Assembly (NCBI RefSeq): GCF_008932115.1
Contig: NZ_CP044543.1
Coordinates: 2,486,501-2,550,500, forward strand
Direction of reading: 5' to 3'
DNA from: Bradyrhizobium betae
Lineage (GTDB): Bacteria > Pseudomonadota > Alphaproteobacteria > Rhizobiales > Xanthobacteraceae
Length of the DNA: 64,000 nucleotides
This document shows, piece by piece, positions 47,011 through 50,966 of the stretch; position 1 is the stretch's first letter; each line of letters opens with the position of its first letter. Under the pieces are notes generated by a model that was given only the letters and a program-made list of their open reading frames with translations, did not search any database and was not told where the DNA came from. Position numbers and translations under genes: made by a program.

Positions 47011-48306
47011 ATGCCCGCGCCGAAACCGCCTGCCTTCGAGACCCTGAGCCTGCATGCGGGCCAGCATCCGGATCCCGCGACCGGCGCCCGCGCGGTGCCG
47101 ATCTACCAGACCACGTCCTACGTGTTCCAGGATTCCGACCACGCCGCAGCGCTGTTCAATCTGGAACGCGCCGGCCACATCTATACGCGCATCTCCAATC
47201 CGACCACCGGCGTGCTGGAGGAGCGGCTCGCGGCGCTGGAGGGCGGTGTCGGCGCGATCTGCACCGCGAGCGGCATGGCCGCGCTGCATCTGGCCATCGC
47301 GACGCTGCTCAATGCCGGCGACCACATCTTGGCATCGAGCTCGCTCTATGGCGGCACCATCAACCTCTTGGCACACACGCTGCCGCGCTTCGGCATCACC
47401 ACCACCTTCGTGAAGCCGCGCGACCACGACGCGTTCCGCGCGGCGATCAAGCCCAACACGAAGCTCGTGATCGGCGAGACCATCGGCAATCCCGGCCTCG
47501 AAGTGCTCGACATCCCCAAGGTCGCAGCGATCGCGCATGACGCAAAGATTCCGCTGCTGATCGACAACACTTTTGCCACGCCCTATCTCAGCCGCCCGAT
47601 CGAGCTCGGGGCCGACATCGTGATGCATTCGGCGACCAAATGGATCGGCGGCCATGGCATCGCGATCGGTGGCGCCATCATCGACGGCGGCCGCTTCGAC
47701 TGGCGCGACTCCGGAAAGTTCGGCGTGCTGACCGAGCCCTATGGCGGCTATCACGGCATCGTCTTCGACGAGCAGTTCGGCACGGCCGCCTTCATCATCC
47801 GCGCGCGCACCGAGGGCCTGCGCGATTTCGGCGCCTGCCTGTCGCCGACCAACGCATTTCAGCTGCTGCAGGGCGTCGAGACGCTGGGCGTGCGCATGGA
47901 CCGCCACATCCAGAATACGCACCTCGTGCTGGAAGCCCTGAAATCGAACAAGGCGGTCGACTGGGTGCTGCATCCCTCGCTGGAGGACCACGCGGACTAT
48001 CAGCTGGCAAAGCAGCTGCTGCCGCGCGGCGCCGGCTCGATCGTCTCCTTCGGCATCAAGGGTGGGCGGCCCGCGGGACGCAAGTTCATCGAATCGCTGC
48101 GCATGATCAGCCATCTTGCCAATGTCGGCGACGCCAAGACGCTGGTGATCCATCCCGCCTCGACCACGCACCAGCAGATGGACGCCGAGCAGCTCAAGGC
48201 CGCCGGCATCGGCGAGGAGCTGGTGCGGCTGTCGGTCGGCATCGAGACCGCCTCCGACATCATCGACGATCTCTCCCAGGCGCTGCGCATCTCGCAAAAG
48301 GTTTGA
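47011..48306 (+). CDS. metY: O-acetylhomoserine sulfhydrylase (PLP-dependent)
   Basis: This 431-residue protein has the length and blocks of MetY: FETLSLHAGQHPDPATGARA, VPIYQTTSYVFQDSDHAAAL, YTRISNPTTGVLEERLAALE and the PLP lysine in MHSATKWIGGHG. It condenses O-acetylhomoserine with sulfide (or methanethiol) to homocysteine (or methionine). An alpha/beta hydrolase gene follows after 4 bp. No SAM-II-type riboswitch could be recognised in the leader. Confidence 0.95.
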   Translation: MPAPKPPAFETLSLHAGQHPDPATGARAVPIYQTTSYVFQDSDHAAALFNLERAGHIYTRISNPTTGVLEERLAALEGGVGAICTASGMAALHLAIATLLNAGDHILASSSLYGGTINLLAHTLPRFGITTTFVKPRDHDAFRAAIKPNTKLVIGETIGNPGLEVLDIPKVAAIAHDAKIPLLIDNTFATPYLSRPIELGADIVMHSATKWIGGHGIAIGGAIIDGGRFDWRDSGKFGVLTEPYGGYHGIVFDEQFGTAAFIIRARTEGLRDFGACLSPTNAFQLLQGVETLGVRMDRHIQNTHLVLEALKSNKAVDWVLHPSLEDHADYQLAKQLLPRGAGSIVSFGIKGGRPAGRKFIESLRMISHLANVGDAKTLVIHPASTTHQQMDAEQLKAAGIGEELVRLSVGIETASDIIDDLSQALRISQKV

Positions 48307-48310
48307 GACC

Positions 48311-49093
48311 ATGAAGCTCTCCGTCAACGGCGCCGAAGTGTTTGTCGCAACCGGTGGCCGCGAATTCGACAAGTCCCTGCCCGCGGTGGTCTTCATCCAC
48401 GGCGCCGGCTTCGACCGTTCGACCTGGGCGCTGCATACGCGCTGGTTCGCCCATCACGGCTTTGGCGTGCTGGCGCCTGACATGCCCGGCCACGGCCGTT
48501 CGGCCGGACCTTCGCTGTCAACCATCGCGGAGATGGCCGACTGGACAGCGGCATTGCTCGATGCCGCCGGCGTGCAGAAAGCGCACCTGATCGGCCACTC
48601 CATGGGATCGCTGATCTCGCTGGAGACCGCGGCGCGCCATCCGGACAAGGTCTCCGCATTGAGCCTGATCGGCACGGCCGCGACCATGACGGTCGGCCCC
48701 GACCTGCTCAAGGCCGCCGAGGCCAACTCGCAGGACGCCAACGATATGGTCTCGATCTGGGGCCTCGGCTTCAACGCCGAGCTCGGCGGCAGCCTTGCAC
48801 CGGGCCTGTGGATGCACGGCGGCGCGCAGGCGGTGCTGAAGCATTGCGAGCCGGGCGTCCTGTTCAAGGATCTGTCCGCCTGCAACGCCTACGCGAATGC
48901 GCTGACCGCTGCCGCGAGCGTGAAGGTGCCGACCACGCTCATCCTCGGTGAACGCGACATGATGACGCCGGCAAAGGCCGGCAAGGCGCTTGCGGCGGCG
49001 ATCCCGCATGCGAAGACCGTCGTGGTGCCGGGCGCGGGCCACATGATCATGGCCGAACGCCCGGATGAATTGCTGGTGGCGCTGAGGGGCTGA
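48311..49093 (+). CDS. Alpha/beta hydrolase
   Basis: This 260-residue protein has VVFIHGAGFDRSTWALHTRW (oxyanion region), LIGHSMGSLISLETAARHPD with the nucleophile Ser, LILGERDMMTP with the acid, and VPGAGHMIMAERPDELL with the His. It starts 4 bp after metY and is certainly co-transcribed. MetX-type acyltransferases share this fold, but this protein is too short and lacks the MetX signature, so it is not homoserine acetyltransferase. A role in thioester or sulfur chemistry is only suggested by position. Confidence 0.9.
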   Translation: MKLSVNGAEVFVATGGREFDKSLPAVVFIHGAGFDRSTWALHTRWFAHHGFGVLAPDMPGHGRSAGPSLSTIAEMADWTAALLDAAGVQKAHLIGHSMGSLISLETAARHPDKVSALSLIGTAATMTVGPDLLKAAEANSQDANDMVSIWGLGFNAELGGSLAPGLWMHGGAQAVLKHCEPGVLFKDLSACNAYANALTAAASVKVPTTLILGERDMMTPAKAGKALAAAIPHAKTVVVPGAGHMIMAERPDELLVALRG

Positions 49094-49099
49094 GTCCGC

Positions 49100-49597
49100 T
49101 CAGGACCCCGGCGTCCACTTCCAGACGATGTCGGAGACATTGACCGGCTTCGGGATCAGGCCAAGTTTTGCGAAACGATCGGCCACGGCCTGCTGGCTCT
49201 TGATCACGTCGGCGTCGAGCGGCACCACGCGATAGCTCGAGCGGTTGACGAAGCGCCTGATAGCCTCGATGTCGACGCCGGTCGCCTCGGCCTGCGCCTT
49301 GGCGACCTCCTCGTGATGGGCGTCCGCCCATACGCCTTCGGAGGCGAAGGTCGTGTTGAGCCTGGCCACCAGCGACGGATATTTCTCAACGAAGTCGGTG
49401 TTGGCGATGTAATAGGCGTCGATGCCGAGCGGCTTGAAGGCATTTTCGAGCGTCTGACGCTGGCGCACCGCCGGGAAGAAGCCGCCCTTCTGGGTGCCGA
49501 TGCGGATTTCCGCCGGCTTGTCTTCAGCGCGCGCAGGTGCGGCCAGGGCAGTTGCGAGGACGAGTGTCGTTGCGAGAATGTGTCGTCGGGTGATCAT
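49100..49597 (-). pseudogene. SsuA-like sulfonate-binding protein with a large in-frame internal deletion
   Basis: Only 165 residues remain. The N-terminus is normal: a Tat-like signal (MITRRHILATTLVLATALAA) and the first strand IRIGTQKGGFFPAVRQRQ. At about residues 57-61 (near 49415-49430) it jumps to DAYYIANTDFVEKYPSLVAR, which belongs to the last third of these proteins, and finishes normally with SDIVWKWTPGS. Sulfonate receptors have about 310-330 residues, so roughly 150 residues, most of both lobes, are missing without a frame loss. It is unlikely to bind ligand. It is downstream of a small gene and a Cys-rich leader peptide. Confidence 0.75.
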
Positions 49598-49618
49598 GAC
49601 GTTGCCCTTTCGGTGAGA

Positions 49619-49840
49619 TCAGTTGGCGAAGAGTTGCGAGTTCGCGCGTCCGCTCCGCTCGGCGAACACGGCGCGAGCGGCGCGCTCGGCCTCGCGCGCC
49701 GAGCGGAACTGGCGGCCTTCGAGACTATCGAACAGGCGCTCGGAGGAGAAGAAGCGGAAGCCGCGCTCGTCGCGTGTGATGATGCCGGCGGCGCGATCGT
49801 GGATCTCGATGATGTAGGCGTTGGACTGGGAGTGGGACAT
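49619..49840 (-). CDS. Small conserved-looking protein in a sulfur-type operon
   Basis: A 73-residue protein (MSHSQSNAYIIEIHDRAAGI) with the central RDERGFRFFSSERLFDSLEG and a C-terminal helix rich in Arg/Ala. No known domain. It starts 72 bp after the stop of the Cys-rich leader peptide and ends 21 bp before the SsuA-like gene on the same strand, so it is the first full gene behind the presumed attenuator. An imperfect CGCCG...CGGCG hairpin precedes its start. Confidence 0.65.
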   Translation of the reverse strand: MSHSQSNAYIIEIHDRAAGIITRDERGFRFFSSERLFDSLEGRQFRSAREAERAARAVFAERSGRANSQLFAN

Positions 49841-49912
49841 GGCTGCTCGTTCGCCGGGATATCGGCGCTTCCTGTCTGGAATCTTCGGTGTGAGTTTGCT
49901 GCTAGGACGCGG

Positions 49913-49963
49913 TCAGCAACAACAACAGGCGCCGGTGGCCGCCGAGAAACAGCGCCGCGTCAT
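49913..49963 (-). CDS. Cys-rich leader peptide (presumed cysteine-responsive attenuator)
   Basis: The frame reads MTRRCFSAATGACCCC and then TGA: 16 residues, five Cys, four of them in a row at the stop. A start at 49975 would add MQVC, with one further Cys. Such peptides precede sulfur-assimilation operons in Actinobacteria and some Proteobacteria and are thought to sense cysteine supply by ribosome slowing at the Cys run. Here it precedes the 73-residue gene and the SsuA-like remnant. Consecutive codons TGT TGT TGT TGC are very unlikely by chance. The remaining gap (49964-50234) shows no gene. Confidence 0.68.
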   Translation of the reverse strand: MTRRCFSAATGACCCC

Positions 49964-50234
49964 GCATACTTGCATGTCGCCGGAACTACGCTGGTGATCG
50001 TTTCTCATGTTGCGGCTTCGAGCTCGAGGAGCAGTTTCGATGCTGCAAATATCGAGCGATTGGCGCGATTGGTCAATGAAATGGCTATCCATATTTGGGA
50101 CTGGCGCGCTGGGGCGCTTCTCCCGCCGCAAGCACTGACAGACAGATTCATCTCGCGATGATTTCAACACGATCACGCGGCCGGCATGGTACGCTTCCGG
50201 CAGCCGGAAAGCAGATCATTTGGGAGGTTCAGGC

Positions 50235-50966
50235 ATGGCGGACGATCTGAAGGGGCGCACGGCTCTCGTCACCGGCGGCTCGCGCGGGATTGGCGCTGCC
50301 GTCTGTCGGGCGTTGGCCGATACAGGTGCGGCCGTGGCGATCAATTGCCGCGAACGGATCGGACAAGCCGAGCAACTGGCGGGCGAGATCGTCAAGCGGG
50401 GCGGTCGGGCGATCGTGGTTGCGGCCGACGTCTCACAGAGCGAGGCCGTGATGAACATGGTCGAGCGTGTCTCGGCCGGGCTCGGGCCGATCGACATCCT
50501 CGTCAACAATGCCGGCATCGCCATCACCCGCGGCGTCGACGATCTCACCGAGGACGATTTCGACCGGACGATTCTGGTCAATTTGAAATCCGCCTTCCTG
50601 TGCACGCAGGCGGTGCTGCCGTCGATGCGCGCGAGGAAGTGGGGTCGCATCGTCAACGTCTCCTCCGGAGCCGCGCGCGGCGCCGGCTCGATCGGCCCGC
50701 ATTACAATGCCTCCAAGGCTGGCATGGAAGGCCTCACGCGCGGTTACGCGGCGCGGCTGGTGAAGGAAGGCATCACCGTCAACGCGGTCGCACCATCGCT
50801 GATCGAGACCGACATGATGAGCGGACAACCCCAGCTCATCAGCCGCATCCCGCTCGGCCGCTTCGGCACGGCGGAAGAAGTGGCGAAAGCCGTGATGCTG
50901 CTGGTCGACAACGCCTACATGACCGGGCAGACGGTCGCGCTGAGCGGTGGGATGGCGTTCAATTAG
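50235..50966 (+). CDS. SDR-family oxidoreductase (3-oxoacyl-ACP reductase-like)
   Basis: ATG 50235 follows GGGAGG at 50222-50227 and gives 243 residues. The cofactor motif TALVTGGSRGIGAAV, the NNAG in ILVNNAGIAITRG, the catalytic Ser in IVNVSSGAARG and Tyr/Lys in YNASKAGMEGL are all present. FabG-like enzymes reduce 3-oxoacyl thioesters, but many relatives act on other alcohols; the substrate is unknown. It stands alone. Confidence 0.93.
   Translation: MADDLKGRTALVTGGSRGIGAAVCRALADTGAAVAINCRERIGQAEQLAGEIVKRGGRAIVVAADVSQSEAVMNMVERVSAGLGPIDILVNNAGIAITRGVDDLTEDDFDRTILVNLKSAFLCTQAVLPSMRARKWGRIVNVSSGAARGAGSIGPHYNASKAGMEGLTRGYAARLVKEGITVNAVAPSLIETDMMSGQPQLISRIPLGRFGTAEEVAKAVMLLVDNAYMTGQTVALSGGMAFN

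What the first reader, a model, noticed from the sequence alone, without database searches (positions are those of the whole stretch)
49913..49975. A Cys4 leader peptide sits upstream of sulfonate-type genes
The minus-strand frame reads MTRRCFSAATGACCCC and then stops: five Cys in 16 residues and four in a row before the stop. This is the pattern of cysteine-sensing leader peptides known for sulfur operons in Actinobacteria and some Proteobacteria. It is placed just before a 73-residue gene and a sulfonate receptor remnant. Such leaders are poorly described in Bradyrhizobium-type genomes, and it falls below normal gene-finder limits.
Basis: partly seen in the sequence, partly recalled or inferred. 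Interest (0 to 1): 0.75.

Follow-up and report, generated by a model that had tools for sequence, protein, structure and literature searches.

The report
Cysteine-codon leader of sulfur genes
A tiny conserved gene ending in a run of cysteine codons sits in front of sulfur-uptake genes in Bradyrhizobium and probably tunes them to the cell's cysteine supply.

Summary
The reading frame is real and conserved. It ends RCFSAATGACCCC* at window 49913 (minus strand); its likeliest start is 50008 (31 codons). It lies behind a sigma-70-like promoter, 72 nt before the 73-residue gene. The Cys run alone is not rare; conservation is the evidence. Of 80 named loci found through the 73-residue protein, 79 carry the leader. 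The core is selected as protein: dN/dS 0.145-0.20 in frame, above 2 in the other two same-strand frames. Leader plus small protein precede SsuA-type receptors, a MetQ receptor or SsuD-like monooxygenases. The element upstream of the promoter recurs before a metQ gene of the same genome. In four genomes of three other genera a Cys-containing leader follows a SAM-II-like aptamer that scores below Rfam's cut-off. A sulfur-linked, cis-acting leader is well supported; cysteine sensing is inferred, the direction of control is open, and no terminator was found. In this genome the receptor has lost about 152 internal residues. New variant of a known kind.

The parts
50048..50076 (-). sigma-70-like promoter TTGACC-17-GATATT
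   Evidence: 9 of 12 consensus positions; a consensus match only; position conserved in relatives
50071..50092 (-). conserved operator-like element ATGGATAGCCATTTCATTGACC, overlapping the -35 box
   Evidence: TGGATAGCCATTTCATTGA found 3 times in the genome with up to 3 mismatches, reversed control 0
49913..50008 (-). leader ORF, 31 codons and stop, MRNDHQRSSGDMQVCMTRRCFSAATGACCCC (inner ATGs at 49975 and 49963)
   Evidence: ATG at this codon in 74 of 79 relatives; dN/dS of the core 0.145-0.20
49961..49976 (-). hairpin P1 inside the ORF, CATGCA-loop-TGCATG
   Evidence: 94.9% of cells paired, 3 of 6 pairs with both-side changes in 49 sequences
49928..49954 (-). core codons RCFSAATGA
   Evidence: codon table; dN/dS
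49913..49927 (-). four terminal Cys codons TGT TGT TGT TGC and stop TGA
   Evidence: first of these Cys kept in 75 of 75 distinct relatives, always TGT
49852..49867 (-). hairpin P2, CGCCG-loop-CGGCG, 11 nt before the start of the small-protein gene
   Evidence: 93.9% of cells paired; outer five pairs nearly invariant, innermost pair covaries but is unpaired in 16 of 49
49619..49840 (-). 73-residue small protein (SP), family and function unknown
   Evidence: 0 Pfam and 0 NCBIfam families; 302 homologues; model pLDDT 81, 0 of 378 PDB fold matches at E <= 0.001
49100..49597 (-). SsuA-family substrate-binding protein, 165 aa, internal deletion of about 152 residues
   Evidence: 60 bits, below the cut-off of 163.5; residues 1-60 and 60-165 match 1-60 and 212-317 of the 317-aa relative in L124

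Best explanation
A translated, cis-acting regulatory leader of a sulfur-limitation cassette: promoter with operator-like element, leader, 73-residue protein, then a sulfur-compound receptor. Ribosomes translate about 31 codons ending in Cys codons. When charged tRNA-Cys runs short they slow or stop there. The stalled ribosome covers the core codons, which can otherwise pair with hairpin P2 in front of the small-protein start, so P2 forms instead and translation of the small protein and the genes behind it changes. Shown here: the ORF, its selection as protein, hairpins P1 and P2, and linkage to sulfur genes. Inferred: cysteine as the signal, the P2 switch, control of translation rather than by a terminator. 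The direction (probably on when cysteine is short) is only an analogy with other cysteine leaders.
For: Leader in 79 of 80 loci found through SP and at 18 of 18 places found by DNA. Core dN/dS 0.145-0.20 in frame, 2.0-6.0 in the two other same-strand frames. Named structure (P1, P2, helix at the Cys codons) paired in 94.1% of cells, slid controls 20-51%; four of five measures above all 500 shuffles, the fifth reached by 2. Genes behind the cassette: SsuA family in 53 of 80, MetQ (L035), SsuD-like (L195, L181). Upstream element shared with a metQ gene. SAM-II-like aptamers before the leader in four genomes of other genera. Matched core-P2 pairing stronger than permuted, p 0.017, 16 hand-picked representatives. 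No terminator-like site on the leader strand.
Against: No expression data. Four of 79 leaders end without Cys and three with a single Cys. Modelling a stall left the SP ribosome site almost unchanged (mean unpaired 0.39 to 0.40; more open in 7, less in 3 of 76), and opened an SD-like AGGA only slightly (0.35 to 0.40; more open in 23, less in 8 of 76). The core is conserved as protein beyond what Cys counting needs. The helix at the Cys codons varies almost only through G-U pairs and was not found by RNAalifold on A4, though it was on 76 sequences. In this genome the receptor is internally deleted. The SsuD-like proteins score below the curated cut-offs.
Confidence: 0.6

Rival explanations
1. 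Arrest peptide: the nascent chain RC[FV]SAATGxC itself acts in the ribosome exit tunnel and stalls the ribosome at the terminal Cys or stop codon, sensing cysteine, a derivative or redox state; the Cys codons are only part of the signal.
For: The core is kept at amino-acid level with free third positions, while the number of terminal Cys varies.
Against: Leaders of other genera keep the core only in part: CTATGIC*, PPCCCRCC*, CTTGVC*, HAAGAC*. No arrest motif known to me matches (recalled).
Confidence: 0.25
2. Rho-dependent control: the leader's translation state decides whether Rho stops transcription in the 72 nt before the small-protein gene; P2 has another role such as RNA stability or spacing.
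For: No intrinsic terminator on the leader strand; Rho is proposed for mycobacterial cys leaders (PMC1262725, passages) and reported for CruR (PMC9426467, passages).
Against: Conserved P2 beside the start codon points to translation; no search for Rho sites was made.
Confidence: 0.2
3. Functional micropeptide acting in trans, for example metal or thiol binding, merely co-transcribed with the small protein.
For: Selection on the peptide itself.
Against: Fixed place before SP in 79 of 80 loci, weak constraint on the N-terminal part (dN/dS 0.56), variable end, hairpins within and behind it.
Confidence: 0.08
4. Chance reading frame.
For: Cys-run patterns are common by chance, and weak profile hits elsewhere read as chance.
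Against: Frame-specific selection and presence in 79 of 80 loci.
Confidence: 0.02

Closest known systems
Poly-Cys leader ORFs of cys operons in mycobacteria and other Actinobacteria (PMC1262725, passages; Canestrari et al. 2020, not held, seen only as cited)
   Same: Short ORF with a run of Cys codons near the stop, upstream of sulfur genes, without an obvious terminator.
   Different: Other phylum; targets there are cys operons and cbs. Here: Bradyrhizobium, conserved core RC[FV]SAATGxC, hairpins P1 and P2, a small-protein gene plus receptor. The 2020 title calls those ORFs leaderless; here the promoter lies about 40 nt upstream of the likely start.
uORFC-8-2 motif upstream of cysS in Rhodobacterales (PMC8632094, passages)
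   Same: Alphaproteobacterial uORF with adjacent Cys codons proposed for ribosome-mediated attenuation.
   Different: That one has two Cys codons at about positions 14 and 15, sits only before cysS and ends in a U run of an intrinsic terminator; none of this holds here.
CruR, copper-responsive uORF of Bordetella pertussis (PMC9426467, passages)
   Same: Regulatory uORF with conserved peptide motifs at the head of a transport operon.
   Different: 145 residues, DUF2946 family, CXXC and RAPP motifs, copper signal. The window peptide has no CXXC pair and no RAPP.
SAM-II riboswitch, SAM_alpha RF00521 (PMC1273637 and PMC9373788, passages)
   Same: SAM-II-like aptamers stand before the Cys leader in four genomes of three other genera.
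   Different: Scores of 16.9-27.3 bits lie below the cut-off of 36; nothing was found in the window at gathering level.

Membership tests
Cysteine-codon leader peptide (attenuator), general kind | short ORF with a run of Cys codons near its stop, upstream of sulfur-related genes | tested here: met
   the run is shorter or absent in some relatives
Cysteine-codon leader peptide (attenuator), general kind | the ORF is translated | tested here: inconclusive
   frame-specific selection argues for it; no ribosome data
Cysteine-codon leader peptide (attenuator), general kind | downstream expression responds to cysteine through the Cys codons | not testable with these tools
   needs an experiment
Classical transcription attenuator | intrinsic terminator between leader and first gene | tested here: not met
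   no terminator-like site on the leader strand in 49000-50240
Translational attenuator | alternative pairing that opens or closes the ribosome site of the next gene | tested here: inconclusive
   P2 conserved, core-P2 complementarity p 0.017, but predicted ribosome-site accessibility hardly changes
uORFC-8-2 | upstream of cysS, with terminal U run | tested here: not met
   next gene is SP, no terminator; definition
CruR (DUF2946) | CXXC and C-terminal RAPP motifs in a protein of about 145 residues | tested here: not met
   peptide sequence; definition
NCBIfam or Rfam families held here | match to any model | tested here: not met
   0 NCBIfam families for three typed leader peptides; best Rfam match over the leader region a chance one at E 4.3

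The most novel reading that the evidence does not exclude
A two-input sulfur sensor family in the family that contains Bradyrhizobium. A conserved nascent peptide (RC[FV]SAATGxC) that arrests the ribosome according to cysteine supply controls translation of a small protein of unknown function through hairpin P2. In several genera it is stacked behind a SAM-II riboswitch, so that one mRNA reads both S-adenosylmethionine and cysteine; in Bradyrhizobium a sulfur-regulon promoter stands in place of the riboswitch.
Probability: 0.3. Interest if true: 0.8.

Novelty: new variant of a known kind. Interest (0 to 1): 0.6.

Why it matters
Cysteine-codon leaders are known in Actinobacteria and before cysS of Rhodobacterales. 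In the literature searches made (open-licence papers only) none was seen for Bradyrhizobium sulfur uptake. Term searches of the main texts of the USDA 110 start-site paper and small-ORF paper found no mention of it; supplements could not be read. If confirmed, it gives a very small, testable sensor of sulfur status in nitrogen-fixing symbionts, ties a small protein of unknown function to sulfur metabolism, and offers a natural case of a riboswitch and a leader peptide in tandem.

Tried and rejected
Chance ORF: rejected.

Intrinsic terminator between leader and small protein: none on the leader strand.

A wider peptide-profile search (297 genomes of the order, E <= 1) listed 259 genomes with a match. 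Loci were given for 30 places only. True leaders among them: L070-L073 (G021, G177, G000, G270), all of the same family; L074 (G416) is a leader fused to receptor remnants. The other 25 I judged to be chance from their translations (one printed empty, several were cut short by a stop inside the match); the best, L075 at E 1.7e-5, runs on without a stop. L095, from the same genus, lies inside a ferredoxin oxidoreductase gene; one search showed only that gene's conservation. Matches without a locus were not inspected.

The first order-wide DNA pattern was wrongly written (it missed TCG and TCA serine codons), so its 2 of 249 counts for nothing, although one of the two, L020, is a true leader.

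Stall modelling gave no clear effect on the ribosome site.

Small-protein paralogues often have no leader: of the 31 loci showed a leader or a Cys-rich end (L039, L041-L047, L050, L057, L060, L068) and 19 did not, among them L040 of this genome. Some have an EcfG-like promoter (motif recalled, not from a call; flagged by a loose pattern). In L050 and L057 the SAATG end lies before such a promoter and glp-type genes, and may not belong to this kind. Of 29 further loci, L227 and L254 have a leader; L242 repeats L050; the script flagged Cys-rich ends in L228, L231 and L246 that I took for chance.

Fold search of the small protein: 0 of 378 matches at E <= 0.001. Plasmids: no match for the leader region.

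Full report
Observation. On the minus strand, 49975-49913 reads MQVCMTRRCFSAATGACCCC and a TGA stop. It is the only CCCC* end in the six frames of the window. Such a run alone means little: TGYTGYTGYTRR occurs 97 times in the genome against 72 for the reversed control. A promoter-like TTGACC-17-GATATT lies at 50076-50048. An in-frame ATG at 50008 gives 31 residues, MRNDHQRSSGDMQVCMTRRCFSAATGACCCC. The leader stop is 72 nt from the ATG of the 73-residue small protein (SP, 49840-49619). The receptor gene follows at 49597-49100.

Conservation. A 160-base query over the leader matched 17 of 60 genomes, the own one included, all of the same genus, at 18 places; all 18 carry the peptide. Starting from SP, the search for related loci confirmed 95 loci and kept the best 80. 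Seventy showed an A[AT]TG leader by script. Nine of the other ten carry a diverged leader by eye and by anchoring. Only L196 (Rhodopseudomonas) has none.

Selection. Among 75 distinct sequences of the 79, the residues S, A, A, T, G, A of the core are kept in 72, 72, 73, 74, 71 and 65, each written with three or four synonymous codons. The first terminal Cys is present in 75 of 75, always TGT. Nei-Gojobori dN/dS is 0.145 for SAATGA and 0.20 for codons 1-9 in frame, against 2.0 to 6.0 in the two other frames of the same strand; the N-terminal part gives 0.56 and the P1 codons 0.41. Pairs of related sequences are not independent and no test was made; antisense frames were not examined. The terminal Cys run is 4 in 59, 3 in 5, 2 in 8, 1 in 3 and 0 in 4 of 79; the ATG corresponding to 50008 is in frame in 74 of 79. 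In L137 an insertion puts that ATG out of frame, so an inner start must serve there.

RNA structure. On 49 sequences (the window and 48 of the 79 loci, chosen for spread), the named structure (P1, P2 and a helix between the Cys codons and the stretch before P1) is paired in 94.1% of cells, against 20-51% when slid; four of five covariation measures exceed all 500 shuffles and the fifth is reached by 2. The tool warns that relatedness inflates such counts. P1 rests mainly on its innermost pair (A-U 24, G-C 13). P2 is nearly invariant except for its innermost pair (A-U 21, G-C 6, C-G 3, unpaired 16). The Cys-codon helix varies almost only through G-U pairs. RNAalifold finds P1 and P2 on this alignment but not that helix; on a 76-sequence alignment it found all three. 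Complementarity of the leader core with P2: matched pairs average -25.8 kcal/mol, permuted -24.0, p 0.017, on 16 representatives picked by hand after seeing the sequences (a seventeenth failed to parse). Modelling a stalled ribosome moved pairing from leader-P2 (12.1 to 6.0 pairs) to local pairs (5.3 to 6.7) but left the SP ribosome site almost unchanged.

Sulfur link. Behind leader and SP a SsuA-family receptor is present in 53 of 80 loci (52 in one piece, L172 in two); L181 has a distant relative further on; none was found in 26, of which L196 has no leader and L159, L183 and L194 end at a contig end. Three such receptors scored above the SsuA-family cut-off (L124, L193, L185). In L035 a MetQ receptor follows, above its cut-off; in L195 and L181 SsuD-like monooxygenases, below theirs. 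L038 has a protein that looks like the one of L195 but was not scored. The element TGGATAGCCATTTCATTGA occurs three times in the genome with up to three mismatches (control 0): here, before a metQ gene (2 mismatches), and once with no clear target. In genome G031 a closely similar metQ stands behind the whole cassette with a similar upstream element. The next gene in the window, convergent, encodes an O-acetylhomoserine sulfhydrylase.

Other genera. SP homologues were found in 45 of 119 and 205 of 391 genomes of the family; most of the loci inspected have no leader. Four genomes of three genera have a Cys-containing leader with a SAM-II-like aptamer in front: G358 (L060, 18.7 bits, E 0.048), G306 (L068, 27.3, E 2e-4), G528 (L227, 16.9, E 0.19) and G482 (L254, 22.9, E 0.005). 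RF00521 was the best Rfam match each time, but below its cut-off of 36, and the gathering-level scan of L060 and L068 found none. My script's motif missed L227 and L254; they were seen by eye. The leaders end CTATGIC*, PPCCCRCC*, CTTGVC* and HAAGAC*, so the core is kept only in part. A hairpin before SP is present in all four by eye. In the genus of G358, 1 of 11 genomes had the SP; for G306 no other genome of its genus was held.

State in this genome. The receptor has lost about residues 60-211 in frame and is probably not functional, yet leader and SP are kept. In many relatives no receptor was found at all, so SP is the constant target. SP has no known family or fold.

Mechanism and verdict. 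The best-supported reading is a translated, cis-acting leader in a sulfur-limitation cassette, with the terminal Cys codons as the likely sensor and P2 as the likely switch. The conserved peptide core suggests that the nascent chain also matters. Cysteine leaders are a known kind (PMC1262725, PMC8632094; passages). This one differs in its peptide, its targets, the missing terminator and, in other genera, the company of a SAM-II-like aptamer; hence a new variant.

Noticed in passing
L060:1237-1309 (+), L068:1256-1329 (+), L227:1241-1314 (+), L254:1865-1939 (-): SAM-II-like aptamers (RF00521, 16.9-27.3 bits, below the cut-off of 36) directly upstream of a Cys-containing leader and a homologue of the 73-residue protein, in three other genera.
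   Followed up: partly
L223 (genome place G000:C1:4632989-4633007, +): A metQ gene of the same genome carries the operator-like element of the leader promoter but no Cys leader.
   Followed up: partly
L074 (G416:C5:563549-563620): A leader fused by a deletion to remnants of the receptor gene: the cassette in decay.
   Followed up: no
L202 (genome place G000:C1:5106869-5106880, -): An exact CATTTCATTGAC lies upstream of a gene that looks like another sulfonate-type receptor (not scored), with a frame that appears broken.
   Followed up: no
window 47011-48306 (+): An O-acetylhomoserine sulfhydrylase gene (NF006004, above its cut-off) lies convergent to the cassette; a protein with the same beginning is the neighbour in many relatives.
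   Followed up: no
L139: A record named Frankia sp. RB7 carries a Bradyrhizobium-like cassette, probably a mislabelled or contaminated assembly.
   Followed up: no
L040 and similar small-protein paralogues: A second, leaderless copy of the small-protein family in this genome; some homologues elsewhere have an EcfG-like (general stress) promoter (motif recalled).
   Followed up: partly
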